Part shown: piece after piece, positions 8,683-33,245 of the stretch | How the letters are laid out: every line of letters begins with the position of its first letter | How positions within the stretch are numbered: position 1 is the first letter of the stretch | Assembly (NCBI RefSeq): GCF_026586665.1 | Contig: NZ_JAODIY010000018.1 | Location: 27,870 to 91,869, forward strand | Reading direction: 5' to 3' | DNA: 64,000 nucleotides | Source: Halovenus rubra | GTDB lineage: Archaea > Halobacteriota > Halobacteria > Halobacteriales > Haloarculaceae | Position numbers and translations under genes: made by a program | The notes under the pieces: generated by a model | What the model was told of the DNA's origin: nothing | Seen by the model: the letters and a program-made list of their open reading frames with translations, nothing else | The model's database searches: none

Positions 8683-8725
8683 TCTCGTCTGTTTTCCGCC
8701 TAATATGAAGTTCTGTAGTACTGGG

Positions 8726-9412
8726 TCAGTGGTGATTTTGGTATAGGAACGGGTCGCCCCATTCTTGCTCCTTGTCTGCGGCCAGTACTTGATCCAGTGT
8801 TTCTACTACCCTATCCACGCCCATCTCGTCAAACTGATCTCTGAGTTCCGTGGCGAGCGGTCGCCACTCAGCACCGTGGATTTTGTTCCATTCTGGCGGG
8901 ACGAGGATGTCGGCGAACATGTGTCCGTAGTCCTCGTAGTGGTGGTCGCATAGGGGTGCGAGATTCTCTGACTCTCTAGAACCACCGTATCGAGGTGGAA
9001 CCATTCGGACAACATACGACGCCTCCTCATTACAGACCAAGCATTGGCCGTCAGTCTTCTCCATCGCATCCTCTCGCTGTGTAGCCGTTATTTGCTTGAT
9101 CTCACTCTTCGGAGTAGGACGATAGCCACGCGCTCGAATATGTTGCTCTCGGTCGATAGACGGGTACTCACCGCATTCCGGACAGCGCTTCTGCCCACCA
9201 TTGCGCCATGACTTACAGTTCGGCCACGAAACTTTCCCCTCGTCACCTGTATCAAGTATCTCTGGCGTCAGTTCCGCGCCACAATCGCATGTGTACGGTT
9301 CTGGCTCAATCCGACTGAGTCCATGCGACTCCGCATTAGCGAGTACGAACACCAGATGCGGCTTCCGATTATGGTGGTGATCTCCCTCTTCAAAATATGT
9401 CGTGACATACAT
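8726..9412 (-). CDS. HNH-nuclease-like zinc protein, active site possibly degenerate
   Basis: This 228-residue protein (ATG at 9412; a GTG at 9463 is possible) contains several Cys pairs: CDCGAE, CPECGEYP and CLVCNEE, which suggests zinc ribbons. Its C-terminal half has the HNH layout PPRYGGSRESENLAPLCDHHYEDYGH with the late Asn and His residues present. The first catalytic His pair expected before PPRYGG is replaced by VRM, so nuclease activity is uncertain. It is the only minus-strand gene between the PLD-ATPase and the Mre11 operon, and is convergent with the former. It may have been inserted there independently. Confidence 0.65.
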   Translation of the reverse strand: MYVTTYFEEGDHHHNRKPHLVFVLANAESHGLSRIEPEPYTCDCGAELTPEILDTGDEGKVSWPNCKSWRNGGQKRCPECGEYPSIDREQHIRARGYRPTPKSEIKQITATQREDAMEKTDGQCLVCNEEASYVVRMVPPRYGGSRESENLAPLCDHHYEDYGHMFADILVPPEWNKIHGAEWRPLATELRDQFDEMGVDRVVETLDQVLAADKEQEWGDPFLYQNHH

Positions 9413-9593
9413 ATCTCGTCCTGTTTCACCCCCTGGACAAAGACATACTGAAACAATTTCCACACCTCAGGTGGAAAGAGAAGCGCCATTGCCGTCATCA
9501 CTTCTGAGCCTTACTCAGCCTCTCTTTAGTTTCACCTTGGTTGCCATACGTTATTGTACCCTCCGCTGTCAGGTTACAATAACCCGGATACCA

Positions 9594-10778
9594 ATGACCA
9601 AGATCCTCCATCTAAGTGACACGCATCTTGGAAATCGACAATATGGAAGCGACACTCGCAGAGACGACTTCACACGCGCTTTCGAGGCCGCCATCGACCG
9701 CGCACTCGAAGAGAACGTCGACGCAGTCATCCACACCGGCGACCTCTTCCATCGCCGAACACCGTCACTCCCTATCGTTACAGACTGTATCGAGATTCTC
9801 AGAAAGCTCGCTGATGAGGACATCCCGTTCTACGGGATCGTCGGGAACCACGACCGGAAAATGGATCAACAGTGGCTCGACCTCATCCGCGAAACGGGGA
9901 CCGCAAAGCGCCTTGACCAAACGCCGACGATAGTGAACGATGACGTCGCCATCTACGGGATTGACGCCGTCACCAAACCGGCATGGCACGCAGCAGACTT
10001 CACCCTCGAAGATCCCCCGAACCCTGACGCGTTCCGACTGCTGGGCATGCACCAACTCTTCGAGCCGCTCGTGCCCGAGTTCTACGCAGATCACGACTTG
10101 ACCGACGTCCTTGACCGGGTGGACATCGATATTGACGCACTCGCGCTCGGTGACTACCACAAGACGGAGAGCCGCATTGTCGAGGGTGTTCCAGCGTGGT
10201 ATGCCGGGTCAACTGATCGATGTGCGACAGACGAAATCGAACCGCGCACCGTCAGTCTCCTCGAAATCGAAGACGGGGATCTCGACCGCCGGGAGATCGA
10301 ACTTAACACTCGGGAATTCGAGTCGATCCGCATCGAATTCGACGAGGATGACAGTCACGGGTTCGCCCGCGATGAACTGGACCGGCACCAGCTCGACGAC
10401 AAGGTCGCTATTGTGAAGCTCACGGGTGAGCGGACGCCCGTCACGTCAAGCGACGTGTACGATATGGCGATAGACAAGGGCGCGGCAGTCTGTAAAGTGG
10501 ATGATAGTCGCGGCCGCAGACAACTTGACTTGGAGGACGGACCGCAGGGGGATATCCAGAGCGCTGATAAGCTCATCGAGGAGAAGCTCGCTGACCAGAA
10601 CCTGAGTGACATCGCCACCGACATCGAAGAGCGGGTTCGCACAGACGACGATCTTGCCCAGACAGCCATCGATGATACGATGGAAGAACTAATCAAGGAG
10701 GCCCAGGCGGACGCCTTCGACGAGCGGGACGTCGACCCTGACCTCGATGACGCGGACGGGGAGGTGAGCGGCGAATGA
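9594..10778 (+). CDS. mre11: Mre11-like DNA double-strand-break nuclease
   Basis: This 394-residue metallophosphoesterase has the Mre11/SbcD motifs in order: HLSDTHLG (D9, H11), HTGDLF at about 48-53, GNHD at about 83-86, MHQ at about 152-154, and a final motif reading LALGDYH at about 183-189. The family usually has GHxH in that last motif; here the first His is Asp. With Rad50 it would trim and open DNA ends using Mn. The ATG at 9594 matches the family N terminus; an upstream extension to 9402 in the same frame is not conserved-looking. It overlaps rad50 by four bases (ATGA). This copy sits in a defence island, so it may serve defence rather than housekeeping repair. Confidence 0.9.
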   Translation: MTKILHLSDTHLGNRQYGSDTRRDDFTRAFEAAIDRALEENVDAVIHTGDLFHRRTPSLPIVTDCIEILRKLADEDIPFYGIVGNHDRKMDQQWLDLIRETGTAKRLDQTPTIVNDDVAIYGIDAVTKPAWHAADFTLEDPPNPDAFRLLGMHQLFEPLVPEFYADHDLTDVLDRVDIDIDALALGDYHKTESRIVEGVPAWYAGSTDRCATDEIEPRTVSLLEIEDGDLDRREIELNTREFESIRIEFDEDDSHGFARDELDRHQLDDKVAIVKLTGERTPVTSSDVYDMAIDKGAAVCKVDDSRGRRQLDLEDGPQGDIQSADKLIEEKLADQNLSDIATDIEERVRTDDDLAQTAIDDTMEELIKEAQADAFDERDVDPDLDDADGEVSGE

Positions 10779-13700
10779 AGATTAAAGCGCTCACGCTGCA
10801 GAATATTCGAAGCTACGAGGATCAGACGGTCGAATTTCCCGATGGAACCATCCTCATTCGCGGTGACAATGGTGCCGGGAAAACGTCTCTCCTGATGGGG
10901 ATCTTCGGCGGGCTGTTCCTCTCGAAGATTCGGAACGTCGGAACGAACGACTTCAATCTCGATGATTTAGTCCGGCGCGGTGAAGACAAGGGCGTCGTAG
11001 AACTGGTCTTCGAGATTGACGGGACAGAGTTCACGGTGACCTGGGAGTTGTACACGACGAGCACCCAGAACAGTGCGACGTTGGACTCCGAGTCGTTCTC
11101 GGATCCAGTAACCGGTATCGAAGACGTCCGGGAAGAGGTGATTGGGTTACTCGGGATGGATGAAGACGACTTCTCCAGTTCTGTCTACGTCAAGCAAGGC
11201 GAAATCGACCGTCTCATCGAAGCAGGTGACCGCGCGGAGATGATCGACAGCCTCCTCGGATTAGACGAACTTGACGAGCACATCGAACGGATGAAAGCGG
11301 CACGCCGCGGTGCCGGTCGCGTCCAAGACCAGAACAAAACGAGTCGGGAGAACTACCAAGAGGACCTCGATGACATCGGGAAAACGGAAGCTGAGTACGA
11401 AGACGAAATCCACTCGCTCACCGACGACATCGCCAACCTCGAAGCAGACATCGAGGAAATCGAGGAGTTCATTGACGAGCTGAAAAACCACCGAACCAGC
11501 ATCAAGAGCGACATTGAGGACTACGAGGACCTGCAGGAACGCAAGGACGAGAAGCAAGAACAGATCGAGGAGACAAAATCGAAGCGGGCTGATCAACAGT
11601 CCACCATCGACAAGAGTGAGACCACCATCGAGGAGGCACAGGACGAGATCGACACGCTCGAAAGTGACATCGAAGCCCTCGATACAGCGGTCGAGTACGA
11701 CCTGAATTCTGCAGAGAGCGCTGAGGACGCGAACGAAGCCGTGCAGGAATCCTTCTTAGAGGCGACGACGGAACGCAACGATTGCGAGAACGACCTTCAG
11801 AACGCCCAAGAAGAACTGGACCGTCTCGAAGACGGCCTCTCTGAGGCCAAGACCGAGCGTGAGGACCTCATAGAGGAGCGTGAGGACCTGCAGTCGGGTT
11901 TCGACGACGCTACTGACCGTCTCACCGACGCGGAAGCAGAACGAGACTCGCTTACGACTGAGCGGAACGAGAGCGTGGCTGCGTTCCTCCCCGCGGTTGC
12001 TGATGGGGACGAGGTCACAGATGACCACGAGGAGGCGGTCGAGGCGCGGCTTGCAGAGCTCCGCGACGAGCGAGAAGACGTGACCGCGACCAAGCGGGAA
12101 GTCACGACGAAGCGCGACCGTGCCGAGGAGGACCTCGAAACAGCGCGTGCGGAACTGGAGACGGCAACTGGTGACTTCGAGGAGGCAGAGTCCGACCTCG
12201 AAACGGTGCAGTCCGAACTGGCGACTGCTAAAGATGAGCTCACGGCTGCCGAAGCGGAGTTCGAAGAACGTGTCGAGGCACTCGCAGACCAGGCCTCTGA
12301 GTTCGACGTGGAAGTCACATCTGAGAACTTAGACGAGCTTCGTGACACGGTGGTCCCGGAGCTCATCGAGGACACCAACGCGGACCTGAACGACATCGGG
12401 AACGCGGTCACGGAGCATCGAAACGACAAGCAGCGCTACGAAGAGGACCTCGCGGAGATCAAGGAACTCGGTGCGCAGGATAAGTGCCCGAAGTGTGGGC
12501 AGACTGTTGAGGACGCGCACATCGAGAGTGAGGTTGAGGAGCTGGAAGCTGCGATTGCCGCTGCGCAGGAGGCTGTGGAAGACGCCCAGGAGACTGAGGT
12601 GGGCCTGCAGTCACGGAAAGATGAGTTGCAGGCGTTCCGTGAGGACTTGCTGGACACGATTACCTACCGTGACGAGACGTTGGCAACGGCACGAGACGAG
12701 GTGGAATCCCTTCGTGACGAGGCGGACGAGCTGCAGTCCCGTATTGAGGAGTTGGAGGACACTATCCAGGACCACGAGTCCACCATCGCAGACTTAGAGG
12801 CAAACATCGATGACCTCGAAGAGCAGGAAGCAACGCTCGATGCGGAACTCTCTGAGGTCAACGACGCCATCGAGACTGGGGAGGATGTCTTAGACGCGTT
12901 CGAGCAGGTGGCCGACCAGCAAGAAACGGTGGCCGATCTTGAAGACGAGATTAGCGATATCGAGAGAGACATCGAGGACATCAACGACGATCTCGCGGAC
13001 GTTGAAGAGGAAATCGAGGGACTGGAAGGCACTATTGAAGAACAGGAGACTGTCGTTGGTGACTGTGAGGCCGCGCTTGAAGCTGCCGAGGAGCGCGTCG
13101 AAGAGGTCGAAGCTGTTCAGGAAACCGTTGAAGACGCGGTTGGGAAGCACGATACCATCAGCGAGTTACGGACGACGATTGAGCAGGAACAGCAAGCCAT
13201 CCAGCACGCTCGTGATCGGATTGACGACCTCAACAGTCAGATCGCTCGCCTCCAAGACGAGAAGGAGGATATCGAGGCGCAACTCGGCGACGAGGATGTA
13301 GAGGACCTACGTGAGGACTTGGAGCGCGTCAACACACGGATCGAGCAGCGCCAGGAGACGCGCGACGAGTATCAAGACGAACTGCAGGAGACACGTGACG
13401 AGCGTACACGGCTCGAAACGGAGCTCACCTCGCTGCGTGAGACGAAAGCCCAGATCGAACTGTTCGAGGACAAAGAGCAGTGGGCAAAGGAGGTTTACGA
13501 CGAACTTGATGCGGTCATCTCGGTCTACGAAAGCACGAAATCCGATCTCCGCGAGCAGTACCTCGCCTACATCAACGAGTACACGAACGACATCTTCAAA
13601 GAGATTTACAAGAACAGTAGCTACCAGCAGGTCATCATCGAGGAGACGTACGACGACCGGCGGGACAGCTACGAGTACGACATTCGGCTGCTCCGTGACG

Positions 13701-14044
13701 ACGGGACAACCGAAGACCCGAGCAACGCGAGCGGCGGCGAGCGCGCAATCGTGAACCTCGCGCTGCGCGCGGGGATCTACAAACTCATCGCCGAACTGCA
13801 CGGTGGGAACCGCGGGCAACTCCCACCGTTCATTCTTGACGAGCCGACGACGTTCCTGGATGAAGGACACGTCGGGCAACTCGAACAAATGCTGACGACC
13901 ATCAAGGAGTGGGATGTCCCGCAGATCATCGTTGTCTCCCACGATGAAGCCCTCATCCACGGGGCTGATCACGAATGCCACGTGACCATCGACGAGTCGG
14001 ACAACACGAGTCAGATCACGATGCGTACCGCGGGGGCTGATTGA
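10775..14044 (+). CDS. rad50: Rad50-like SMC-family ATPase
   Basis: This 1089-residue protein is a complete Rad50. It has the Walker A GDNGAGKTS at about 30-38, a long coiled coil (about 170-900) of Glu/Asp-rich heptads, and a zinc hook KCPKCG with Cys at about 571 and 574. The ABC signature ASGGERAIVNLALRAG is at about 983-998, with Walker B PFILDEPTTFLDEG at about 1016-1029 and a His switch VVSHDEAL just after. It partners Mre11 to tether and process DNA ends. It starts inside the end of mre11 and its stop overlaps the ATG of the NurA gene, giving strict translational coupling. Confidence 0.95.
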   Translation: MKIKALTLQNIRSYEDQTVEFPDGTILIRGDNGAGKTSLLMGIFGGLFLSKIRNVGTNDFNLDDLVRRGEDKGVVELVFEIDGTEFTVTWELYTTSTQNSATLDSESFSDPVTGIEDVREEVIGLLGMDEDDFSSSVYVKQGEIDRLIEAGDRAEMIDSLLGLDELDEHIERMKAARRGAGRVQDQNKTSRENYQEDLDDIGKTEAEYEDEIHSLTDDIANLEADIEEIEEFIDELKNHRTSIKSDIEDYEDLQERKDEKQEQIEETKSKRADQQSTIDKSETTIEEAQDEIDTLESDIEALDTAVEYDLNSAESAEDANEAVQESFLEATTERNDCENDLQNAQEELDRLEDGLSEAKTEREDLIEEREDLQSGFDDATDRLTDAEAERDSLTTERNESVAAFLPAVADGDEVTDDHEEAVEARLAELRDEREDVTATKREVTTKRDRAEEDLETARAELETATGDFEEAESDLETVQSELATAKDELTAAEAEFEERVEALADQASEFDVEVTSENLDELRDTVVPELIEDTNADLNDIGNAVTEHRNDKQRYEEDLAEIKELGAQDKCPKCGQTVEDAHIESEVEELEAAIAAAQEAVEDAQETEVGLQSRKDELQAFREDLLDTITYRDETLATARDEVESLRDEADELQSRIEELEDTIQDHESTIADLEANIDDLEEQEATLDAELSEVNDAIETGEDVLDAFEQVADQQETVADLEDEISDIERDIEDINDDLADVEEEIEGLEGTIEEQETVVGDCEAALEAAEERVEEVEAVQETVEDAVGKHDTISELRTTIEQEQQAIQHARDRIDDLNSQIARLQDEKEDIEAQLGDEDVEDLREDLERVNTRIEQRQETRDEYQDELQETRDERTRLETELTSLRETKAQIELFEDKEQWAKEVYDELDAVISVYESTKSDLREQYLAYINEYTNDIFKEIYKNSSYQQVIIEETYDDRRDSYEYDIRLLRDDGTTEDPSNASGGERAIVNLALRAGIYKLIAELHGGNRGQLPPFILDEPTTFLDEGHVGQLEQMLTTIKEWDVPQIIVVSHDEALIHGADHECHVTIDESDNTSQITMRTAGAD

Positions 14045-15330
14045 TGGACACGAACGCACTCAGCATCGTCGAAGACATCTTCGACCACATTGACACGAAC
14101 ATTCCGCGCGATGTCACCCCACAAGCCAACTACGCCCGCCGGCTCTTCGAGCACCTCTCACAGGACGGTGGACGCGTCACCACACTCGGTGACCCGACCT
14201 ACCAGAAGACGCGGATCGACGAACTCGGCACGTGGACCGGCGACCCGTGGGGGACACCGACCTATGGGCTCGATGCCAGCACCACTCGCCCGTTGGAGTT
14301 CAACAACGGACTCATCGTGGACACCGCGTACGCCAAGCTCGGCGTCGCCGGCGCTGACACCGATAAGCGCATTGAGGAGACCGGCACTGTCGAAACGGTC
14401 GTGTACCTCGCAGACAGCGAAAGCACGCTCCACGCCGAACAGTTCGAAGCCGATCGCGTCACCGGCGAAGTCGTGCAGTTCCCACCGACAGATCGCTCTG
14501 CGACTCTCTCAAAGTCAGTTGCCAGCGCCGCGCAAGGCCTTGCGGAGAGTACTCACGCCGCGACTCACGTTGACGATCTTGATGGCTTACTGTTCATCGA
14601 CGGTGCAGTCTACCCGCTTGGCATCCTCTACTGGGTTCTTCTTGACCAAGTCGGCCGCACTACGCCCGCCGGCGCATGGGACAAGCCCGCCGAGATCATT
14701 CGGAACTACATCGACGTCATCGACACCCAGTACGAACACGGGTATCCAGTCATCGGCGTCGTGAAGACCTCCACGATCAGTCAACTCCTCGATGCCCTGG
14801 ACGCGAAACTCGCCGCGAATCACGTGACGAACGACCACGGTGGACAGCTCGATGTCCCGTGGACACGCGACCATCAGTTCGTCGCCGAAGTGTTACGCGA
14901 CGACAGCCTCGAACACCTCACGTACACGTCATGGTTTGTCCACAAGCAAGCCCCTGTTGACGGGCAATCGTTCGAACTCCTAGAACCGTACAGCGAGAGC
15001 CTATCACACGGAGACCCCGCCGACTACCGGCGAGCGTTCTTCTACGTCCGACTCCCGAAAACCGGTGACGTACTCCGCGTGGAAACACCGCGGCTCATGA
15101 TCAACGACGAACAGACCCGCAACCAGATCCAGTACAAAGTTCTGAAAGAGATTGCGCAGACCCAGGACGTCCCACAGGCCGTCGGGCGCGCCGACCGGAT
15201 CGCCCGGATCAGCCGTGACAACCGTGACACGATTCGGGACTTCCTTACGACCGCCGACTACGCCCACGACTACAACTGGGACGGCCGCTGGAACGACATC
15301 GAACAAGCACCCGACACCCAACTCCAATAA
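14044..15330 (+). CDS. nurA: NurA-like 5'-3' nuclease
   Basis: This 428-residue protein has the NurA motifs: YGLDAS at about 73-78 with the first metal-binding Asp, and LLFIDGAVYPLG at about 181-192 with the second. A later segment (YPVIGVVKTS at about 238-247) fits the RNase-H-like fold of the family. NurA forms a ring-bound nuclease on the HerA translocase and resects 5' strands at breaks. The ATG at 14044 overlaps the rad50 stop; a TTG immediately before it is possible. Its stop overlaps the herA start by one base. Its place between rad50 and herA makes the assignment firm. Confidence 0.85.
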   Translation: MDTNALSIVEDIFDHIDTNIPRDVTPQANYARRLFEHLSQDGGRVTTLGDPTYQKTRIDELGTWTGDPWGTPTYGLDASTTRPLEFNNGLIVDTAYAKLGVAGADTDKRIEETGTVETVVYLADSESTLHAEQFEADRVTGEVVQFPPTDRSATLSKSVASAAQGLAESTHAATHVDDLDGLLFIDGAVYPLGILYWVLLDQVGRTTPAGAWDKPAEIIRNYIDVIDTQYEHGYPVIGVVKTSTISQLLDALDAKLAANHVTNDHGGQLDVPWTRDHQFVAEVLRDDSLEHLTYTSWFVHKQAPVDGQSFELLEPYSESLSHGDPADYRRAFFYVRLPKTGDVLRVETPRLMINDEQTRNQIQYKVLKEIAQTQDVPQAVGRADRIARISRDNRDTIRDFLTTADYAHDYNWDGRWNDIEQAPDTQLQ

Positions 15331-17210
15331 TGAGCGACAACACAGACGACATCCTCGACCGCGATCCCGTCAGTAACGACGAATCAACGAGTGCCGACAC
15401 CGGTACCGACGAACCCACCGATAACGAGACGGACACTACAGACAGGGAGACGGACGATCAGACCACCGTCCCAGAAACGACGGTTCCGAACTCGCTGACT
15501 GACGCCGACGAGGACGAACTCGGACACGTCGTTGCCAGTGAAGAAATCCACGTCACGCGTAGCGAGTATACCGTCAACGCGTTCGTAAAAACCGACTGCC
15601 GTGATGACGTCCGCGTCGGCGATTACGTCCAAATCCCATACCCTGGGTCAGACCCAACCGAGCAAGCTGACGAACTGTTCGCCGTCGTCGATGGGCTCCG
15701 ATACGAACCCTACACGGAACTCGACGACAAATCGGACACCCACAACCGGATCGCGTCAGTCCACGCCCTTGACGAGACAGAGTTCGTCCTCGTCGCCGAA
15801 CTCGAACCCATCGCCATCATCTCCTCAACCGACGACGGACTCGAACGCAGCATCGTCAACAAAATCCCGAAACCCAACACGCCTGTCGCGTTCTCCCTTG
15901 ACGAAGAGTATCTTCGCACCGGCCTCAACATCCCACAAGACGGTGTGTTCGCCGGGTACCTCTCCGTCGGCGGTGACCGTATGACCGTGGACGGCGACCC
16001 GCTCCCCTACTTCATCAACAACCCCGGCATTGACCCCGTGACCGAGGACGTTGAGTCCGGCGAACCCGCAATCTTCCGGCACACCCTCGTCGCCGGCTCC
16101 ACCGGGAAAGGGAAAACGCACTTCACGAAAAACCTGCTCCGACAGTTCGCTACGGACAAGCGGTACCCAATAGAAAACCACCAGACCGGCGACACCGAAT
16201 ACAGCCGCCTCAACCTCGTCATCCTCGATCCCGAAAACGAGTACTCCGAAATGCGGAACGGCAACCCCGAACTTCGTAACGAGGACGAACTCGTTCAGCG
16301 GCTCGAACGGCAAGGCATTGAGGTCGGCGGTATCGATAACTTCGAGACGTTCATCCCCGATATCGGGAACACAAACGCTCCCACAACCGGAGAAAGCCGG
16401 AACCTGACGATCCCGTTCTCTCTCGTTGAACACCGCCCGCAACTCCTCATGCCGTACACACCGACGGAAGTCACGCGCGGAGCCCTCGAAAACTGTATCG
16501 ACGCCTACTTCTCCGATACTGACACGCCAACGTACGACGGCTTCCTCCAATACCTCCGTACCAACGAAGATTCAGAAAGTCCGCTCCGCCAGCGGTACAA
16601 CATCGAAGACGGCACATGGAGCGCGATCATGCGCCGCGTCACCGACGCCGCCTACCGCGACGTCTTCGACCACGGCACGAATCCCCTCCCCGACGTATCA
16701 AACGCCGTGTTCCGTGAAGGCCAGGTCACTGTCGTCCCGACCAGTCACCTCCACGGCGCAAAAGAAGAACTCACCGTCCTCTCCATCCTCTCCTACATCA
16801 TCGACAACAAAATCGACGACTACAACGTCGATCCCAACGTCAAGGATACCCCGCTCCTCGTCGCCGTTGACGAAGCCCACAACTACGTTTCTGACCCCGA
16901 CACTCTCCGGGAACAATACATCGTCAACCGCGCTCGTGATGCCGTCAAACAAGGCCGCAAAGACAAACTCGGCCTCTTCATGATCACGCAAAACCCCGAA
17001 GACATCGACGGCGACATCCTCAAACAAACCAACACCAACATCTTCCTCGGTCTCCGCGAAGAAGTCATCACCAAAGTCCCCTCCATCCCCCGCGGCTACG
17101 AACAAGACCTCCAAAAATACGGCAAAGGCCAAGCCGTCATCAAAGCCCCAGACGTCGAAGCTGTCGAAGTTCTCGGCCTTCCCTACTGCCTCACCCAACA
17201 CAGCAACTGA
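15330..17210 (+). CDS. herA: HerA-like hexameric DNA translocase
   Basis: This 626-residue protein begins with about 70 disordered, Asp/Thr-rich residues not typical of HerA. A HAS-barrel-like region (about 70-200) follows. The ATPase has Walker A VAGSTGKGKTHFTKNLL at about 252-268, an arginine-rich centre, and Walker B LLVAVDEAHNYVS at about 508-520. The C-terminal MITQNPEDIDGDILKQTNT segment is typical of HerA/FtsK relatives. HerA pumps duplex DNA toward NurA and Mre11-Rad50. It is the last gene of the operon. Bacterial HerA-nuclease pairs act in antiphage defence, so a defence role here is plausible but inferred. Confidence 0.9.
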   Translation: MSDNTDDILDRDPVSNDESTSADTGTDEPTDNETDTTDRETDDQTTVPETTVPNSLTDADEDELGHVVASEEIHVTRSEYTVNAFVKTDCRDDVRVGDYVQIPYPGSDPTEQADELFAVVDGLRYEPYTELDDKSDTHNRIASVHALDETEFVLVAELEPIAIISSTDDGLERSIVNKIPKPNTPVAFSLDEEYLRTGLNIPQDGVFAGYLSVGGDRMTVDGDPLPYFINNPGIDPVTEDVESGEPAIFRHTLVAGSTGKGKTHFTKNLLRQFATDKRYPIENHQTGDTEYSRLNLVILDPENEYSEMRNGNPELRNEDELVQRLERQGIEVGGIDNFETFIPDIGNTNAPTTGESRNLTIPFSLVEHRPQLLMPYTPTEVTRGALENCIDAYFSDTDTPTYDGFLQYLRTNEDSESPLRQRYNIEDGTWSAIMRRVTDAAYRDVFDHGTNPLPDVSNAVFREGQVTVVPTSHLHGAKEELTVLSILSYIIDNKIDDYNVDPNVKDTPLLVAVDEAHNYVSDPDTLREQYIVNRARDAVKQGRKDKLGLFMITQNPEDIDGDILKQTNTNIFLGLREEVITKVPSIPRGYEQDLQKYGKGQAVIKAPDVEAVEVLGLPYCLTQHSN

Positions 17211-17309: not shown

Positions 17310-18827
17310 TCACTTATCAAGTCGTCTCATCGTCTCTCGAAGAGATTCTGAATCAAGACCGACTTGGGGCGGTGATTTTTTCGCCAACGCATCTTCGAAC
17401 AGCCGTTCAACATCGTCAACTGTCACGTCAAAGAGCGTAATCTCAGTAGAGCCAAGCGATGGCCAGTTTTCAGGTTCCATGTCGTCGTGCTTCTCCTCAT
17501 GATACTCTCTGAATTCTGTCTCCGAAATATGATCAGTATCTTGCTGAAGCAACCGATTAAACTCCAAACGGAGAGTCTGCTGGATCTTTTTTGCTTCAGA
17601 TTTGTTATCGCGTACTGCCCGGTACAGTTCGATCAGAGCGTCAGCACGAATCTGAATGATCGGTGCGCCGTTCATGTAACTGGCGTCACTGTACTGTTCA
17701 GCTAGCTTTGATGCGAAACCTTCCAGATCACTCGCATCCATTCTTGGAGAAATGAAAATGAAACCAGCAAATGAATCAATCGGGAAATCCTCCTCGATCA
17801 TCTCAGAATTTTCTCGGATCAGTCGAGGATACTTCGTCATGTTTCGCTGATCGCTTGCGCTTAGGTCGTATGGCTCTTTCTCTGGAATTGAATACTTGGC
17901 ATCCCAGAGATACAATCGGCCAGTACCATCGACTTGAAGACATAGAGTCCCGTCCGGAAATTCTAGCCCGCTTTCCGTGGTCCCGAAGAGTTGAGAGGTT
18001 CTGAAGCAATAATTGAAAAGAGTATTGACGATGTATTCAAACACATCTTCATTGATTCGATCTATATCTCCGACTTCCTCTCTGTGATTCTCGTACAATT
18101 GAGCAGCAATGCGTGCTCGCGTATCGAGATCGGTGAGCTCCCCGATATGGCACGCTGACTCGATTAAGTCTTGGAGCTTCTCTATCTGTGCATCCGATTC
18201 CATTTGATATAGTTCTCCGAATTCGATGAACGGCAAATTGAGTTGCTCCATATAATTCCGGTTCCCGACCCCATTGCCAACAAGAACAAAGAATGCTTGT
18301 CGTCGGTAGAGTTTTATCGTCTTTACAACTGGCTCTGGAAGCCTGGTCGTACAAAGATGAACATCAACAGTATCTTGAATGGGTTCTCTATCTCGGAACC
18401 CCTGACGCTTTATTCTCAGGACCTGACCGTTGAATCTGTATCCTAAATATGTCAGTGACTTCTTCTGAGCAGAAAAAATTGATTCTATTTTCTTAGATTC
18501 GCTCTGGATATAGTTCCGAACCTCATCGAAGTCTGTCTTGAACCGAAACTGGGTTTTTGGCCTCTTTTTACTGAGATCGATTTGACGTCCACAGTCGCAC
18601 GATACAATTCCTGCGTCCTGCTGTGCCTCTGTAACCTCTATGGCTCTATCACACCCCTCAATTTCTGCAATTTCAAAATCATCGTCCTCACGCGAGGTAC
18701 ACTCAATGAGAGTAACCGGCACCTTGGACCCGAGTCCAGCCTCCTCAAGTTCATCCAGCTGATCTTCTAAGCCCGGTCCATTCCCCTCAAACGACGGGTC
18801 AAGAATATCGTCGATAGAGACACTCAT
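17310..18827 (-). CDS. FokI-like PD-(D/E)xK nuclease with N-terminal recognition region
   Basis: This 505-residue protein contains GLEFPDGTLCLQV at about 286-298 followed by YLWDAKYSIPEKEPYDLS at about 304-321 and MTKYPRLI. The PDG…DAKYS spacing and the trailing helix match the FokI cleavage domain, so it should cut DNA. A CDCGRQ motif near residue 78 may bind zinc. I see no methyltransferase or helicase part. The ATG at 18827 overlaps the stop of the upstream gene (ATGA), so the two are coupled; in-frame codons further upstream are not preferred. The partner gene would supply sensing or restraint. Family beyond the nuclease fold is unknown. Confidence 0.65.
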   Translation of the reverse strand: MSVSIDDILDPSFEGNGPGLEDQLDELEEAGLGSKVPVTLIECTSREDDDFEIAEIEGCDRAIEVTEAQQDAGIVSCDCGRQIDLSKKRPKTQFRFKTDFDEVRNYIQSESKKIESIFSAQKKSLTYLGYRFNGQVLRIKRQGFRDREPIQDTVDVHLCTTRLPEPVVKTIKLYRRQAFFVLVGNGVGNRNYMEQLNLPFIEFGELYQMESDAQIEKLQDLIESACHIGELTDLDTRARIAAQLYENHREEVGDIDRINEDVFEYIVNTLFNYCFRTSQLFGTTESGLEFPDGTLCLQVDGTGRLYLWDAKYSIPEKEPYDLSASDQRNMTKYPRLIRENSEMIEEDFPIDSFAGFIFISPRMDASDLEGFASKLAEQYSDASYMNGAPIIQIRADALIELYRAVRDNKSEAKKIQQTLRLEFNRLLQQDTDHISETEFREYHEEKHDDMEPENWPSLGSTEITLFDVTVDDVERLFEDALAKKSPPQVGLDSESLRETMRRLDK

Positions 18828-20074
18828 TCTGATGAAACAAAACAAGGAGTGATATCTAGGGCCTCCTCCATATCGTGTTCAAACTCCTCACGTTCGGTAT
18901 CAGAGATACCAGCAGCTTGGTACCGGACGTACCATTCATAGTCATTCCCCTCATCCTGACGGGGAAAAATCGTATAGGTCGTGTCGTCTTTTTCGATTGC
19001 GATATGTTTGACCCTCCGCATTTCGGTAAAGAATTGATCGCTCGTCGTTTGCAGGTCCTGAATAGCCGGAAGCACCCTTTCACCGTTGGTTCGTAACTTC
19101 ACAGTGGGGTTATTCGTCAGCTTTGAATCACCAGTGAGTATCCCCGTCACGACGTATTTCCCTACATTCTCAACATTTTCAATAAGGTCTATCGGGGAGA
19201 TTCCATCGAAATGGTCGTGTGGCTTACGCTCTTCAGCCCTCTCGAACTCTACGTCTGTGTCATGATACGCACCGGCCAATGATGTTCGAACCGTCCCCGC
19301 CGTCGATTTCTTCTCAGTATGAATCTCAACCTTGTCGTCAACGAACTTAGAAACGACATATTCCGCTTGCTCTACTTCTTCGTTCGTCGTGGTTTGGGTA
19401 TCTACCGCGTCACGGTAGTGCCGCTTGATCGTCAAAAAATGACTACCGCCATACTGGAATGAATGCCACTCTTGCGCGTCTCGACTTGACGTTTCTAGTA
19501 CATCTTCGACATCTCCTACAGTGAGATCATCAATCGGATTCGAAGGAGGGTTGTCAGCTTGGCCGATTTCACGAGGCTTGGGGCGATCAATATGATCAAG
19601 CGTAAAGATACTTTTCAGTGACTCCTTGTCATACAAATAAATGAACATACACTTGCTGACTCTCCGGTTCTGCTTATCAAGTGAATCATAGAGGTCCTTG
19701 TACCCCGAATCTACGTCCCCAGCAATTTCATTGTAGTAATAGTCGATATACTCCTCTTTTACCCCTCTCGTGAATCGATAGGCTGCGTACATACACTTTA
19801 ATCCACCAGAGTCCATTGAATCGATAAGATCGAAAGTCTCCTCCTTACTCTGCTTCACTTGATCACGGTCAGACTCACCCTCCACCTGCTTCCAAGCGAT
19901 TCGCAACGCGTCTTTGCTAATACTCGGACTAGCCGCCCGGTGTCGAGCATCACCTCGAATGTCCTCATCAGTCCAATTATTGTCAATAATCTCGCCCGGA
20001 ACTTCGAGGTTTACCCAGTCTGACGGCTGATACGAGAGCGTCGTGAGAGAAGAAGTAGTTTGACTTGAAGACAT
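18824..20074 (-). CDS. Unrecognised protein coupled to the FokI-like nuclease
   Basis: I do not recognise this 416-residue protein. It is acidic and soluble, with no Walker, nuclease or membrane motif. Residues about 100-125 are aromatic (YAAYRFTRGVKEEYIDYYYN). The C-terminal third (VKHIAIEKDDTTYTIFPRQD) looks like a beta-rich binding domain. A TATA-like tttatcatt sits about 25-30 bases before the ATG, giving a leaderless promoter for the two-gene operon. Since the downstream partner is a predicted DNA nuclease, this protein may sense the invader or hold the nuclease inactive. That is inference from gene order only. Confidence 0.6.
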   Translation of the reverse strand: MSSSQTTSSLTTLSYQPSDWVNLEVPGEIIDNNWTDEDIRGDARHRAASPSISKDALRIAWKQVEGESDRDQVKQSKEETFDLIDSMDSGGLKCMYAAYRFTRGVKEEYIDYYYNEIAGDVDSGYKDLYDSLDKQNRRVSKCMFIYLYDKESLKSIFTLDHIDRPKPREIGQADNPPSNPIDDLTVGDVEDVLETSSRDAQEWHSFQYGGSHFLTIKRHYRDAVDTQTTTNEEVEQAEYVVSKFVDDKVEIHTEKKSTAGTVRTSLAGAYHDTDVEFERAEERKPHDHFDGISPIDLIENVENVGKYVVTGILTGDSKLTNNPTVKLRTNGERVLPAIQDLQTTSDQFFTEMRRVKHIAIEKDDTTYTIFPRQDEGNDYEWYVRYQAAGISDTEREEFEHDMEEALDITPCFVSSE

Positions 20075-20466
20075 GATTTGTAGTGTATGTGTGATAATGA
20101 TAAACGTTGCGTGGTATTCATCTCTTCAGACTTAACTCTATGACTACTACTCAAAATGAGATCTATCACACTATCAATCTTCACAGTCACGAACTTCACC
20201 AGAAAGTTATGCTCGGCGCTAGTAGCGATGTTCCGCGATTATGTTTCGTGTTCAACGACGACATCACTCTGGGAGAGGGGGTTTGGCTACCTGTTCGGTA
20301 ACTAGTTCGATACCGGGGAAAATTTAGCTGGGACTCCAAGAGTGCTCTTGGGCGAACGAGTTCTACGACCCCAACGGATAGTGACTCTCAACTCTCACTA
20401 GATCTGCTGCGAGACTCCAATTTACCAGTAAGAGCCCGCACGAACGATGGTAGTGTGAGTAACCGC

Positions 20467-21122: not shown

Positions 21123-22286
21123 TCACTCCTCAATCAACGGGTTGATTGTCCGTTCGATAAGTGCGTCCGTCAACTCCTGGTCGTGCCGGATGCATACCAG
21201 ATCGATATCGTGCTCGTCGCACAGTTCCTTCTTTTTCTGGTCACGCTCCTGCCGCTGTTTGAGGCCTTCCTCGCCACCCCAGTGCTCCACTGCCTCGTAG
21301 TGCTGGATTCCCTGATATTCAATCCCGACCTCGGCTTCTTCCAGAAAAATATCTAACTCCAGTCCGTCGAGAAAGTCCGGTCGGTAGTGACGCTTGATGG
21401 TGTGATCAGGATAGTTCGACTCCACGATCTGGTAGAGGATGGTCTCGCTGGTCCACCGGTTGCCCTTCTTGTAGTGGCCGAACGCCTGCCGAACCTCGTT
21501 CTCGACAGTGTCCATGATCTCCTTGCGCTCCGCCTGCAACTGGTCCTGCAGCTCCGCAAAATCCTCGGCTTCGTCGTCGGGTAGTGGATCCATCTCTTCG
21601 TAGGGCTCCCGAACCTCGCGGATCCGGCGGTACCGCTCCTCCCGGTCAATATCATCCGGCAATTCGTCCCGGACCTCGTCAACCGCTTCCTCTTTCTGCT
21701 CCCGGATTTCCCGTTCGCGTTCCCATTTCTTCTCTTGGAGGCGTTCGAATCGGTCAATGCGGTCCCGGAAGCCATCGTCCACGATGTCGGCGATATCTTC
21801 GGGGAGGGCATCGTGGAGATAGTCATTTCCACCGCAGACTCCGTATTCATACTGTTGCTGATTGACATACCAACCGTGTTTTTGCATGAAGACAGTGCCG
21901 TACATCTCGTGACAGTACTGATATTCGGGGACAACGCCATTGCAGCGGTGGCAAAGCTGGTCGGCAAAATTGAGGTCCTCAATAACGGCATCCGGTGAGT
22001 CAACATCCGTATTAGGGACTTGGTCAAGCGTATCCTCCGGAAATTTCCGACTGAAAATGTTCTCAACTGAGGGGGTACGGCCAGAGACAGCAGGATTCTC
22101 CACCTCACACCGAATATAGTTCCGAATCGCGTCCTTCGCACAGCTGCAAAAATGGAGGTCGCCATCCGGCTCTGGTTTGAAGCCGATGAACACACCGTAG
22201 TGAGCGGGGTACTGAACGATCGGATAAGGTAGTTTGTCCTGCCGGTTTTCACGGCCGGGATCCACGACGATAGGGTTCTCCGCCAT
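21123..22286 (-). CDS. Zinc-cluster protein with Vsr-like nuclease domain
   Basis: This 387-residue protein has three parts. The N-terminal third holds Cys motifs (FCSCAKDAIRNYIRC at about 47-61 and CHRCNG…CHEMYG at about 111-131) that suggest zinc binding. The middle (about 165-270) is a charged coiled coil. The C-terminal domain reads LELDIFLEEAEVGIEYQG followed by IQHYEA and a basic helix, the layout of Vsr/DUF559-type PD-(D/E)xK nucleases, with Asp and Glu-x-Gln on adjacent strands. It probably nicks or cuts DNA. There is no methyltransferase next to it; the following gene is an unknown on the same strand 67 bases away. Confidence 0.7.
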   Translation of the reverse strand: MAENPIVVDPGRENRQDKLPYPIVQYPAHYGVFIGFKPEPDGDLHFCSCAKDAIRNYIRCEVENPAVSGRTPSVENIFSRKFPEDTLDQVPNTDVDSPDAVIEDLNFADQLCHRCNGVVPEYQYCHEMYGTVFMQKHGWYVNQQQYEYGVCGGNDYLHDALPEDIADIVDDGFRDRIDRFERLQEKKWEREREIREQKEEAVDEVRDELPDDIDREERYRRIREVREPYEEMDPLPDDEAEDFAELQDQLQAERKEIMDTVENEVRQAFGHYKKGNRWTSETILYQIVESNYPDHTIKRHYRPDFLDGLELDIFLEEAEVGIEYQGIQHYEAVEHWGGEEGLKQRQERDQKKKELCDEHDIDLVCIRHDQELTDALIERTINPLIEE

Positions 22287-23541: not shown

Positions 23542-26073
23542 TTACGGGAAGATATCTTGCTCCATGAAGTCGCGCAGGGTGCTGATGTCAAGTGAGCTCC
23601 CTGTCGTATGCTCGTCAAAGTTTTCGAACAGCGCCCCAGCGTCTTCAACAGTCAAGTGGACATAGAACTCATCATCCACGTCACGATGATAGTAATTACC
23701 GTCGTTTAGAATCAGATAGAACTGCTCATAGAACTCCTGGATATGTCGTTTGATTGCCTCAACGTTTTCGTTGAAGCCGATGTGAAGTCCGAGAAGGAAG
23801 TCAACATGCATTAATACTGGAATTCCATCCCAACTCTGCATCTTGTTAATACGTTCGGCGACACGTGAACCAAAATTGCCGGGCTCGGCGTTAGTAATCA
23901 CGACAAAGTTTCTGAATTGCGTATCAGATGACTGAACATCAGGAGAATCCTTGATACGATGGATATAACCGCGGAGATCCTTAGCTTCTGAAGCATCGAT
24001 ACTCAATTCGTCAGAAGTAGTGAACTTTCCATCCCACGCAAAAGACCGGAAGAAGCGCCCCTGACTCTTAGAAAACAGGAGTTCCGCAAACCCATCTGGG
24101 AGATTCCCCCGTCGTTTCGTACCCCACTGCTCGGCATTCGTGATTATCTGATTGATAAGATGGAAGAGTTCCAGTTCGAAATCCCCGCCTACGTAGTCTT
24201 CGGGGTTCTCAACAATCTCCTGTAGTTGGTCATACGCGTCAGCGGCGGTTCGTGCAGCACGCTGCTCAGTAGCCCGTGCCACCTCTTCGATGTGCTGGGT
24301 GATATAGTCATCCGACAGCTCGTCATCGAGATACTTGTCGATTATCTCGCTCAAATCCAGATACGTGGCGAGGACCTCCCCCATCAACCGCTGATTTTTG
24401 ACTGTGCCCGGATTCAGCAGTGTCACCGGATTAATACTCCTGTACAGGTGATCGATGGACTTCGGAGTGATGCTCACTTCCGGGGTATTAATCAGCACAT
24501 GGACAATATCGCCTTCATGACGGACACGACGGAATCGATATTCTGTCCGGTATATCTTCTCTGTTTTCGTCCCTAGGTAGTCCAGTCCCTCGTCTGCAAG
24601 CCGATTTTGAAAGAAATTCAAAACGCCGCGACTCGACAACGTCACCTTCTCAAACTCCGCGAAAACAACTAAATCGCCGCCACATGCTGGACAGGTATCG
24701 TCCTCCCGCTGCTCATAGATTTCTTCACAACCTTGACACTGCTTCCGATCGACAGAGTGCGTGTTGACCACGCCGAGTTCGGCGAGATCATCAATCAAGT
24801 CTTGATACAGATTATTCTGTGTTTCATAAGTAGGCGGATTTTTGAGGATAAAGGAGATTACCTGCTTCCTCTCTCCGGTCACCCAGTGTAAGGGTATTTC
24901 CTGGTCAAGCGGAATTCCAAACCGGTCTTGGAACGTATCCCGAATTCTGCCAGAGAGATCACCTGAGTGTGTCTTGATATCTGAATCAAGTCGAAGAATA
25001 TTCTCATCAGTTTCAATATCGACGTGTACCCGAGCGTCAACGCCATAGGCGTTAAACCAGAATCGGCGAATGTTCAGGATGCTTGGATTAACGACATCTT
25101 CAGCGAGCGCTGAAACGACATTTCGTATTTCAGTGTCGTAGGATTTTTTGGAGACCGTAAGCGGTACTGACGGAGTTGTCTCCGTCCGCCGAAATTCGAC
25201 GTTCAGCAGCCGGATTTCGCTTCCCTCCGCGTCATCGTCTAATTCACGGAGAGACGACTCGAACTGTGCCGCATCGACAGCCATCTGATTTTGAACGGCA
25301 TCAACATTCACCAACGAAATAGCGAAAATCTCCTCAAGCTTTTCTACAAGCGTGTCACGGATTGTCTGATTGTTCGCAATAATCTTGACGACGCCTTCCT
25401 CCTCTTTAACCTCTACAAAGATGCTTCGTAGGTTACGACGCCGTTGAGCGCCGACAACGTCACGTCGATCTCTATCAGAGGTTTGACGGTCGATTGCAAA
25501 GATGGTCGAATTCATAAAGGAGAGTTCGTTTCGGTCTTCATATCTGAAATGGCCGGTGTTCATACGGCGTGATAGGGTAACCTGGATTTTCCGAAAGTCA
25601 TCATCAAAACGATCGATATAGTCATCAGGAAGGTCGTTTTCGACACTGTATGTCCGTTCATTCTTCGCATCGGACCACTCCTTATAAAGCAGCGATTGAT
25701 AGGCGAAACTCTGATTCCCATCTAGGAACGCTTGAAGCAGATATCGATATTCCTCATCCTCCTCAACCTCGTCTCCATATCTTCCTGCCATTTCCCGTAG
25801 GAGCGTGCGTTTATCGGCAAGAAATCGGTAGAGGGTGTAGAGTGTAACTGCCTCCGCTTGATGGGACACAATCTCTGATTGGAGATTGTCTGTCCCATCG
25901 TCGATATCCAGAAGCTCACGAATAACATCTAGCGTATCAGAATCAAGATTATCCAGGAGATCCTCAAACTTCGATTTGTATATATCGTCCCATCCGTCCT
26001 CATACCGTGGCCGATCAGCGGGGACATCCCTCAATATGGTATCGGGGTTTAACTGGGCTTGAACCGCTGCCAT
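23542..26073 (-). CDS. Large single-protein FokI-like nuclease (candidate defence effector)
   Basis: This 843-residue protein has a long N-terminal part of unknown fold. A zinc ribbon follows (CQGCEE at about 445 and CPACGG at about 461). The nuclease signature is ELFHLINQI, then LPDGFAELLF at about 655-664 and SFAWDGKFTTSDE at about 674-686, with a helix LRGYIHRI after it. That order, PDG…D-x-K…helix, matches the FokI cleavage domain. The central repeats of beta-rich sequence (about 230-430) might bind DNA or a ligand. No partner gene is adjacent; it stands alone between two fragments of one nuclease gene, so it may be a self-contained restriction factor. No known system is recognised. Confidence 0.6.
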   Translation of the reverse strand: MAAVQAQLNPDTILRDVPADRPRYEDGWDDIYKSKFEDLLDNLDSDTLDVIRELLDIDDGTDNLQSEIVSHQAEAVTLYTLYRFLADKRTLLREMAGRYGDEVEEDEEYRYLLQAFLDGNQSFAYQSLLYKEWSDAKNERTYSVENDLPDDYIDRFDDDFRKIQVTLSRRMNTGHFRYEDRNELSFMNSTIFAIDRQTSDRDRRDVVGAQRRRNLRSIFVEVKEEEGVVKIIANNQTIRDTLVEKLEEIFAISLVNVDAVQNQMAVDAAQFESSLRELDDDAEGSEIRLLNVEFRRTETTPSVPLTVSKKSYDTEIRNVVSALAEDVVNPSILNIRRFWFNAYGVDARVHVDIETDENILRLDSDIKTHSGDLSGRIRDTFQDRFGIPLDQEIPLHWVTGERKQVISFILKNPPTYETQNNLYQDLIDDLAELGVVNTHSVDRKQCQGCEEIYEQREDDTCPACGGDLVVFAEFEKVTLSSRGVLNFFQNRLADEGLDYLGTKTEKIYRTEYRFRRVRHEGDIVHVLINTPEVSITPKSIDHLYRSINPVTLLNPGTVKNQRLMGEVLATYLDLSEIIDKYLDDELSDDYITQHIEEVARATEQRAARTAADAYDQLQEIVENPEDYVGGDFELELFHLINQIITNAEQWGTKRRGNLPDGFAELLFSKSQGRFFRSFAWDGKFTTSDELSIDASEAKDLRGYIHRIKDSPDVQSSDTQFRNFVVITNAEPGNFGSRVAERINKMQSWDGIPVLMHVDFLLGLHIGFNENVEAIKRHIQEFYEQFYLILNDGNYYHRDVDDEFYVHLTVEDAGALFENFDEHTTGSSLDISTLRDFMEQDIFP

Positions 26074-26709: not shown

Positions 26710-27795
26710 TCAGAAGTCATCAAGTTGGCTTTGCTTGCCGAGCTCTGCAACAATACGCTCCTCACACGCATCTCTTAACTGGTCCTTCATTCCCTCAATC
26801 CGCCAGTCTACCCACTTGTTTTCGAGTGCTCGTTCAAGATCGTCTTTAGCGGTATAATTGGACACGATCTTGAACTCTGCTCGATCATCATCCCATTCAG
26901 ACAAGAAGTTGAGGTGTTTCCCTGATTCGATGAGCTCATCGACGATTTCTGAGATGCGCTCCTCGGTGTAATTCAACGCACTATTCGAAACGTACTCCTT
27001 GATATCGTCACGGTCAACACACGGGTATCGATCTTCAACTCGGCGAGATTGTATGACAACACGTAGACGGTCTACAATGATGGAAGTCGGTAGAACATCT
27101 GCCTGCCCGAAGCTCGTGGTCACCCGATCCAGTTCGCTGTTCAGAGACGAAATGTCGTGAGTATGTCGGCGGTCAAGCTCTTCGAGCATAGCATCAGGGT
27201 CGTCAGATTCCAAGTTGTCAGGAAATGACCCGGGTCTTGCCTGCCGAATCCACAGCGTATCGGAGTGAGCATCCACGACCCACGTAATGAATTCCACACC
27301 GGTCTCGATAATCTCCTTCGCAATCTTATCACCGTGATTGACGTATGTCGCTACCACGAACTCCATATGGTTGATATCGCTTCCGAGATACTCCTCTTCG
27401 ATGTATTCCTTGTGATCCTCTGCTACTTCCTTTCGTTCTTGAATTTGGTTTACAACAGTGGCTGCGCTATCAGGTATCGAAGATTTCGCTTCGCCGAATA
27501 TCACACTACCGTCAAGATTCCAAAGTAAGAAATCGAAGTTTGGAACATCGAGTTCCTCCAGCGGCTCAGCGGTGATGAACTTGTATCCAGCAGGGTTTCC
27601 TTGTGCGAACGGGAAGATTGAGTAGCTGATGAGTTTGCGATGATGGCGTTGAACGTCGATCTCCTCACGGAGGGTTTCACGTTTTGACTGCTCCGGGAAC
27701 TCTTGGAGCTTATGATGGACACACTTGCCGTATAGCCCACGGTATTTCGTTTTTTGACCCTCTGGCACCGACTCTGGAGGGTCAACGTTCGTCAT
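26710..27795 (-). CDS. PD-(D/E)xK nuclease-fold protein
   Basis: This 361-residue protein has VPNFDFLLWNLDGSVIFGEAKSSIP at residues about 84-108. The Asp followed by the GEAKSS strand is a classic PD-(D/E)xK metal-binding site, so it should cleave DNA or RNA. The C-terminal half is charged and helical, with a winged-helix-like SALNYTEERISEIVDELIES segment. It starts one base after the stop of the upstream unknown gene, so the two are one operon. The layout, unknown protein then nuclease, mirrors the operon at 17.3-20.1 kb although the sequences differ. Confidence 0.65.
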   Translation of the reverse strand: MTNVDPPESVPEGQKTKYRGLYGKCVHHKLQEFPEQSKRETLREEIDVQRHHRKLISYSIFPFAQGNPAGYKFITAEPLEELDVPNFDFLLWNLDGSVIFGEAKSSIPDSAATVVNQIQERKEVAEDHKEYIEEEYLGSDINHMEFVVATYVNHGDKIAKEIIETGVEFITWVVDAHSDTLWIRQARPGSFPDNLESDDPDAMLEELDRRHTHDISSLNSELDRVTTSFGQADVLPTSIIVDRLRVVIQSRRVEDRYPCVDRDDIKEYVSNSALNYTEERISEIVDELIESGKHLNFLSEWDDDRAEFKIVSNYTAKDDLERALENKWVDWRIEGMKDQLRDACEERIVAELGKQSQLDDF

Positions 27796-27796
27796 A

Positions 27797-33228: not shown

Positions 33229-33245
33229 ATCTCAAATCAGTATGA

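What the first reader, a model, noticed from the sequence alone, without database searches (positions are those of the whole stretch)
17310..20074. Two-gene operon: unknown protein plus FokI-like nuclease, a candidate new defence system
The downstream protein has PDG…DAKYS spacing with a trailing helix as in the FokI cleavage domain. The upstream partner has no known motif and overlaps it by ATGA. There is no methyltransferase to protect self DNA, so activity must be gated, perhaps by the partner. I know no described system of this form.
Basis: partly seen in the sequence, partly recalled or inferred. Interest (0 to 1): 0.75.

Follow-up and report, generated by a model that had tools for sequence, protein, structure and literature searches.

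The report
Archaeal FokI-type nuclease with sensor-like partner
Next to other antiviral genes, this salt-loving archaeon carries a pair of genes for a FokI-like DNA-cutting enzyme and an unknown partner; relatives that make both halves as one protein suggest the pair works as a single, so far undescribed, defence nuclease.

Summary
At 17310-20074 (minus strand) an undescribed 416-aa protein overlaps a 505-aa nuclease by ATGA. The nuclease C-terminus models as a FokI/BspD6I cleavage domain (Z 10.6-10.7), and E264, D/E292, D309 and K311 are conserved in 20 of 20 aligned relatives. The family has no Pfam or NCBIfam model and no credible PADLOC match. Seven of eight split loci found (nucleases 22-46% identical) carry the partner directly upstream with overlapping genes; the eighth is cut by a contig end. 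In other archaea both halves are one 783-848-aa protein, colinear with the pair, and one such protein (843 aa) lies 3.5 kb away in this window. So the partner is probably a permanent subunit, not a loose antitoxin. Single-chain members sit next to BREX-5, McrBC, GmrSD and DUF499/DUF1156 genes; the window also holds type II CBASS and type IIG genes. Best reading: a methyltransferase-independent defence nuclease in which the partner (helical plus TBP-like domains) and the nuclease's zinc ribbon do the sensing, and FokI-type dimerisation gates cutting. Defence, cutting and target are untested. A weak CENP-N/RnlA-like fold match of the partner is the most surprising lead.

The parts
18824..20074 (-). 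partner protein P0002 (416 aa): helical N-terminal region (residues about 17-163) followed by two alpha/beta (TBP-like / helix-grip-type) regions (about 164-277 and 308-412)
   Evidence: ORF; AlphaFold2 model pLDDT 69.7, pTM 0.59; homologous to the N-terminal half of single-chain relatives
17310..18827 (-). nuclease P0001 (505 aa)
   Evidence: ORF; AlphaFold2 model pLDDT 77.0, pTM 0.73; 7 further split homologues
18824..18827 (-). ATGA overlap of the partner stop and the nuclease start
   Evidence: sequence; 7 of 7 junctions in hand overlap (6 by 4 nt, 1 by 1 nt)
18591..18701 (-). zinc ribbon of the nuclease (C43, C59, C77, C79), preceded by a short helical segment in the place of the winged-helix-like stretch of relatives
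   Evidence: C43, C59, C79 in 20 of 20 rows and the fourth Cys in 18 of 20 at the aligned column, the window row carrying it one place over; weak profile matches to RPB12/RpoP (E 0.9-2)
18141..18530 (-). middle domain of the nuclease (residues 100-229), restriction-endonuclease-like fold, no conserved catalytic residues, probably inactive
   Evidence: VIA-align Z 8.1 to 8bao and, for residues 4-227, Z 8.1 to 1xmx; no column at 18 of 20 or more identity between residues 80 and 262
17409..18131 (-). FokI/BspD6I-type PD-(D/E)XK cleavage domain (residues about 233-473); catalytic set E264, D292, D309, K311
   Evidence: Foldseek top rows 1fok, 2fok and BspD6I; VIA-align Z 10.6-10.7; conservation in 20 of 20
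20093..20104 (-). TTTATCATTATC, a TATA-like element 19-30 nt before the partner ATG, as expected for a leaderless archaeal transcript (inference)
   Evidence: sequence; not tested against chance
23542..26073 (-). single-chain homologue P0003 (843 aa) with zinc ribbon and PDG...WDGK nuclease: both halves of the pair in one protein
   Evidence: found (E 1.4e-10 with L022); hhalign of the split-nuclease profile to P0003 E 4.1e-15

Best explanation
The pair encodes the two subunits of one nuclease machine, the split form of an archaeal family that elsewhere is a single chain. SHOWN by sequence and model: a FokI-type catalytic domain with a complete PD-(D/E)XK set, a zinc ribbon, a restriction-endonuclease-like middle domain without conserved active-site residues, constant coupling to a partner homologous to the N-terminal half of single-chain members, and residence of the family in defence-gene neighbourhoods. 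INFERRED: the partner and the zinc-ribbon region form the recognition/sensor part; they bind a feature of invading DNA or of a DNA-protein complex, not a sequence protected by a partner methylase. Bound complexes then bring two FokI-type domains together and cut both strands. Because one FokI domain alone does not cut duplex DNA, self-damage is limited by the need for a trigger and for dimerisation, so no methyltransferase is needed. Functionally this would resemble type IV restriction or Shedu-like nuclease immunity.
For: Cleavage domain; the eight top VIA rows are all FokI or BspD6I (Z 9.6-10.7), then a step down to other nucleases (for example Avs4 6.8, Shedu 5.6). Active-site set conserved in 20 of 20. 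Partner directly upstream in 7 of 8 split loci, genes overlapping in 7 of 7. Colinear single-chain homologues: partner profile to fused residues 11-392 (hhalign E 2.3e-8; E 2.4e-9 with P0003 added); nuclease profile to fused 419-833 (E 7.9e-18). Defence context of single-chain members in 8 plasmid regions read: inside BREX-5 in 2; downstream of McrBC-type genes in 3; DUF262/DUF1156/DUF499 genes in 4. One single-chain member outside the order is next to OLD-TOPRIM plus UvrD genes. The window has CBASS, type IIG and HKD-Snf2 genes, and Natrialba aegyptia has an Mrr_cat gene directly upstream of its pair. Distribution is patchy, 4 of 392 genomes of the order, on a megaplasmid and next to integrases, as for horizontally moved defence genes; the pair's G+C is 46.7% against 54.1% for the window. 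FokI domains must dimerise to cut and are sequestered before that (PMC4081073, passages read).
Against: No activity, phenotype or target is known. Defence context is weaker for the split form than for the single-chain form: GN101, G326, G407, G429 and G430 neighbours are mostly unnamed genes, integrases or primase-like genes, and Halanaeroarchaeum's single-chain region shows no clear defence gene. The partner alignment to one single-chain sequence alone (P0003) is weak (hhalign prob 7.3, E 0.005); it is firm only with several sequences. The TBP-like reading of the partner rests on a medium-confidence model.
Confidence: 0.6

Rival explanations
1. Toxin-antitoxin or abortive-infection pair: the partner holds an otherwise toxic nuclease inactive and virus infection frees it.
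For: Two overlapping genes with the partner first, as in many such modules; no adjacent methyltransferase seen. The partner fold search returns RnlA, a toxin of a TA system, at ranks 5 and 11, though RnlA is the toxin there, not the antitoxin.
Against: Twelve single-chain homologues used here carry the partner half fused to the nuclease, which does not fit a labile, removable antitoxin. The partner is nearly as large as the nuclease and similarly conserved.
Confidence: 0.17
2. Classical restriction enzyme (type IIS-like) protected by a methyltransferase elsewhere in the genome, for example the Eco57I-type genes at 43-49 kb of the window.
For: FokI and BspD6I, the nearest folds, are type IIS-type enzymes. 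Single-chain relatives often lie near methylase genes such as pglX and DUF1156.
Against: No methyltransferase among the adjacent genes scanned of the split loci. The window's MTase genes match type IIG restriction-methylase models, which carry their own nuclease, and lie about 23 kb off.
Confidence: 0.1
3. A nuclease serving the mobile element that carries it (integration, plasmid competition, replication), or a repair nuclease, rather than antiviral defence.
For: Carried on a megaplasmid and near integrases and primase-polymerases. The window pair converges on a Mre11-Rad50-NurA-HerA-like operon.
Against: Single-chain relatives are embedded in BREX-5 or lie beside McrBC and GmrSD. Distribution is too patchy for core repair (4 of 392).
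Confidence: 0.13

Closest known systems
FokI / R.BspD6I restriction and nicking endonucleases
   Same: C-terminal PD-(D/E)XK cleavage domain of the same fold (Z 10.6-10.7); D292-D309-x-K311 spacing as in FokI (FokI numbering recalled)
   Different: No FokI-like recognition domain found; zinc ribbon, restriction-endonuclease-like middle domain and a separate partner instead; no adjacent cognate methyltransferase seen
GmrSD (type IV restriction)
   Same: Two subunits that exist as two genes or as one fused chain (GmrS/GmrD precedent: PMC4437046, abstract in search listing); methyltransferase-independent; found beside BREX
   Different: Different domains: GmrSD is a ParB-like plus HNH enzyme (PMC12839542, section 35); no sequence relation seen
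Shedu, Avs4 and LmuA nuclease domains
   Same: PD-(D/E)XK nuclease gated by a sensor part (recalled); the nuclease domains appear lower in the same fold search (Z 5.6, 6.8, 5.5)
   Different: Clearly less similar than FokI; no NTPase or coiled-coil subunit here
CENP-N/Chl4 (inner kinetochore) and RnlA
   Same: Partner model: top four Foldseek rows are CENP-N/Chl4 (E 1.8e-3 to 8.7e-3, prob 0.98-1.00) and rank 5 is RnlA; VIA Z 5.9-7.5 over 156-182 residues for CENP-N/Chl4 rows
   Different: No sequence match; Z is within the usual noise range; other alpha/beta folds score as high or higher over residues 151-277

Membership tests
PD-(D/E)XK nuclease, FokI-type cleavage domain | FokI-like fold of the catalytic domain | tested here: met
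   1fok_A Foldseek E 0.010 prob 0.98; VIA Z 10.6 over 164 residues, rmsd 4.0; BspD6I Z 10.7 over 199
PD-(D/E)XK nuclease, FokI-type cleavage domain | Acidic residue plus D/E-x-K catalytic set | tested here: met
   D/E292, D309, K311 and E264 in 20 of 20 aligned proteins
PD-(D/E)XK nuclease, FokI-type cleavage domain | Cutting of duplex DNA after dimerisation | not testable with these tools
   needs protein
Type II (IIS) restriction-modification system | Cognate methyltransferase in the locus | tested here: not met
   none in the GN101 region (26 annotated features; incomplete table) and none among the adjacent genes scanned in the other split loci (only part of the neighbours scanned); the window's MTases are about 23 kb off and type IIG-like
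Type II (IIS) restriction-modification system | Fixed recognition sequence | not testable with these tools
   needs enzyme assays
Known anti-phage systems of PADLOC-DB 2.0.0 | Match to a model of a system component | tested here: not met
   P0002 none and P0001 only a 57-residue Drt2 match at E 2.5e-4 judged spurious; none for 6 further family proteins; none for P0003 and 3 further single-chain members
CENP-N / RnlA-like fold (partner) | Same domain arrangement: helical N-terminal domain plus TBP-like domain | tested here: inconclusive
   ranks 1-4 of Foldseek, but E above 1e-3 and VIA Z 5.9-7.5; model pLDDT 69.7

The most novel reading that the evidence does not exclude
The partner is an archaeal member of the fold group to which the kinetochore DNA/nucleosome reader CENP-N/Chl4 belongs, and reads a DNA-protein or chromatin state of invading genomes (unchromatinised, packaged or replicating DNA). 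On recognition it licenses a FokI-type nuclease. That would be an innate, methylation-free self/non-self rule based on chromatin state, and would give the eukaryotic CENP-N module a prokaryotic conflict-system relative.
Probability: 0.1. Interest if true: 0.88.

Novelty: new variant of a known kind. Interest (0 to 1): 0.6.

Why it matters
Defence families of archaea are thinly described. Here a two-gene locus without a name or a Pfam model turns out to be the split form of a family with three sequence groups, found inside or beside BREX-5, McrBC, GmrSD and DUF499/DUF1156 neighbourhoods. If it defends, it is a methyltransferase-free FokI-type nuclease whose natural gating could teach how FokI domains are kept safe, and its split/fused design gives a ready two-component test. 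The possible CENP-N/RnlA-like partner bears on where kinetochore DNA-reading folds came from.

Tried and rejected
Single-sequence searches: no Pfam family (best for P0002 an Xre/MbcA match at E 0.26, below cut-off); NCBIfam only a LysW-like zinc ribbon, E 0.02, for P0001; PADLOC gives P0001 a Drt2 match at E 2.5e-4 over 57 residues, judged spurious. PDB sequence search: none for P0001, ThreeFoil E 0.27 for P0002; with alignments only weak hits. PHROGs only E 0.005-0.006 matches to unnamed families for 2 of 7 proteins. No relatives in IMG/VR contigs. The fused protein had no match in plasmids or phages; the first genome-contig scan found none, the second 2 loci. A search of the class of G553 with the fused profile found 2 of 232 genomes, both already known.

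Row dropped before counting: G578/L026 (E 5.5e-4, 57 residues, a zinc-ribbon-only match in a 153-aa frame). For the tree and the 20-row motif count I left out near copies (L036, L038), L022 (its locus is cut before its start codon) and the plasmid copies H5, H6, H7, H11 and H12; single-chain rows entered as their last 450 residues. The tree warns that long branches meet (P0003, G326), so 'split is one side of one branch (100/99)' is support, not proof, of a single fission or fusion.

Idea that the middle domain is a receiver or CARF sensor: the VIA list mixes receivers, Card1/Can2-type nucleases, McrC, EndoMS and BstEII, so I call it restriction-endonuclease-like without active-site residues and go no further. 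Idea of viral relatives of the partner: BFVD gave RdgC-like and unnamed rows at E 1e-3 to 0.04, not convincing. Literature: no description found in searches. The 2026 BREX survey PMC12839542 (passages, and the first of two parts of section 35) catalogues PD-(D/E)XK nucleases and OLD ATPases beside BREX; its supplement could not be read, so the BREX-5 single-chain members may be listed there without a family description. A claim of novelty rests on these searches only.

Full report
What is there. On the minus strand, gene 1 (partner, 18824-20074, 416 aa) overlaps gene 2 (nuclease, 17310-18827, 505 aa) by ATGA. The pair is more AT-rich (46.7% G+C) than the window (54.1%) and both proteins are acidic, about 20% D+E. 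Neither has a Pfam or NCBIfam model, and PADLOC gives only one match, judged spurious.

It is conserved. Protein searches of whole genomes found the nuclease in 4 of 392 genomes of the order (own included) and the partner in 3 of the same 392, all three also positive for the nuclease. Profile searches found 3 of 125 in the family of G371 (2 seen before) and 4 of 170 in the family of G284 (1 seen before, one a single-chain form). The plasmid collection holds one locus, megaplasmid 2 of Halobacterium sp. GN101. That makes 8 split loci with the window. Seven have the partner immediately upstream; in the eighth (Haloferax sp. Q22) the contig starts 104 bases before the nuclease. All 7 junctions overlap, 6 by four bases and 1 by one base, although the nucleases share only 22-46% identity with the window's and the partners 20-52%.

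The nuclease. The AlphaFold2 model (10-row alignment, pLDDT 77.0, pTM 0.73) matches FokI and BspD6I best of 350,542 PDB chains (Foldseek E 0.010-0.031 for the nine FokI/BspD6I rows at the top). VIA-align gives Z 10.7 for BspD6I (195-199 residues) and 10.6 for FokI (164 residues, rmsd 4.0), with a clear step down to other nucleases (Avs4 6.8, Shedu 5.6, LmuA 5.5). Foldseek's own E-values are modest, so the fold call rests on both programs and on the motif. In 20 aligned proteins E264, D309 and K311 are invariant and residue 292 is D or E. In front lie a four-Cys zinc ribbon (C43, C59 and C79 in 20 of 20) and a domain (100-229) that resembles restriction-endonuclease-like domains (1xmx and 8bao, Z 8.1) but has no conserved active-site residues.

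The partner. The model is weaker (pLDDT 69.7, pTM 0.59): helices to residue 163, then two alpha/beta regions. Its four best Foldseek rows are CENP-N/Chl4 of human and yeast kinetochores (E 1.8e-3 to 8.7e-3, prob 0.98-1.00) and rank 5 is RnlA. VIA-align gives 5.9-7.5 for CENP-N/Chl4 over 156-182 residues spanning both parts, while short matches of the alpha/beta part to COR, adaptin appendage and similar domains reach 8.8. By the tool's own note such Z values may be only a common arrangement. No sequence match supports it. I keep it as a lead. That these alpha/beta folds belong to a TBP-like/helix-grip group is recalled, not tested.

Single-chain relatives. A phylum search gave 5 of 294 genomes: the window's own, three genomes outside the order with one long protein each, and one zinc-ribbon-only match that I dropped. 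The long proteins (834-848 aa) are colinear with the pair: the partner profile aligns to residues 11-392 (hhalign prob 95.3, E 2.3e-8) and the nuclease profile to 419-833 (prob 99.0, E 7.9e-18). A second single-chain group occurs in haloarchaea: 8 of 185 genomes, own included, and 9 plasmid records; the two groups are homologous over most of their length (hhalign E 7.4e-27). The own-genome match is in the window itself: an 843-aa protein at 23542-26073 (P0003), 3.5 kb upstream of the pair, with the same zinc ribbon and a PDG...WDGK nuclease motif. On the tree of nuclease halves, the 8 split rows form one side of one branch (100/99), with a long-branch warning. Own-genome searches with the two single-chain profiles found only P0003.

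Surroundings. The window is a defence island. It holds a type II CBASS set: SMODS cyclase 33246-34484, E1-E2-JAB 30892-33228 and TIR-SAVED 29591-30895. It also has type IIG restriction-methylase genes at 43-49 kb and an HKD-Snf2 helicase at 49.4-53.2 kb. A metallophosphatase-Rad50-NurA-HerA-like operon converges on the pair. Single-chain members on plasmids lie between pglZ and an OLD-family gene of BREX-5 loci (OLD assignment), 58 bases after McrBC-type genes, or beside DUF262/DUF1156/DUF499 genes. Of 8 distinct plasmid regions read (the ninth record is a second entry of the Halanaeroarchaeum plasmid and was not read), 7 contain at least one gene annotated with a defence-type name; the Halanaeroarchaeum region has none, and the Halomontanus region only BrxE at its edge. 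The split loci are less clearly placed: an Mrr_cat gene upstream in Natrialba aegyptia, integrases near G429 and G430, primase-polymerase genes near G326 and G407. I scanned only part of the neighbours there.

How it probably works. A partner half that is fused in many relatives is a permanent subunit. A FokI-type domain cuts duplex DNA only after two domains meet and is sequestered until then (PMC4081073, passages). I therefore propose that partner plus zinc ribbon recognise an invader feature, that assembly on DNA brings two nuclease domains together, and that no methylase is needed. The GmrSD enzyme gives a precedent for a two-gene/one-gene modification-dependent restriction enzyme (PMC4437046, abstract in the listing). 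What is recognised, and that DNA is cut at all, is inference.

Novelty. The catalytic domain is a known kind; the family, its domain order and its split/fused forms were not found in Pfam, NCBIfam, PADLOC 2.0.0, PHROGs or in nine literature searches. The closest survey (PMC12839542, passages and the first part of section 35) describes PD-(D/E)XK nucleases beside BREX in general; its supplement was not readable here. I rate it a new variant of a known kind (methyltransferase-free nuclease immunity), with interest 0.6.

Noticed in passing
window 29591-34484 (-): Type II CBASS set: TIR-SAVED effector, E1-E2-JAB protein, SMODS cyclase.
   Followed up: partly
window 9402-17210 (+): Four-gene operon of metallophosphatase, Rad50-like ATPase, NurA-domain protein and HerA-like ATPase; the Rad50- and HerA-like proteins score far below the curated cut-offs of the housekeeping families, so it may be a mobile or defence version.
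   Followed up: partly
window 43382-49374: Type IIG-like restriction-methylase (1217 aa, +) beside a shorter, oppositely oriented Eco57I-type copy (726 aa, -): possibly a specificity-switching or decayed duplicate; an integrase lies at 42672-43340.
   Followed up: no
window 49405-53241 (-): HKD(PLD)-Snf2 helicase, best PADLOC model C3a139 'HKD+Snf2'; resembles the helicase of the type-2 BREX-related systems described in PMC12839542.
   Followed up: no
L042 / L044 (BREX-5 plasmids) 7578-11810: Single-chain relative followed by an OLD-TOPRIM ATPase, both next to pglZ (and, in L042, before pglX) and on the opposite strand to them: a possible two-gene add-on of BREX-5.
   Followed up: partly
L033 3979-7833 (unnamed archaeal genome G714): OLD-TOPRIM ATPase plus UvrD helicase (Gabija-like) close to the single-chain relative.
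   Followed up: no
window 21123-22286, 26710-28894 (-): Proteins without Pfam match; the 387-aa one ends in a sequence that looks endonuclease-like by eye.
   Followed up: no
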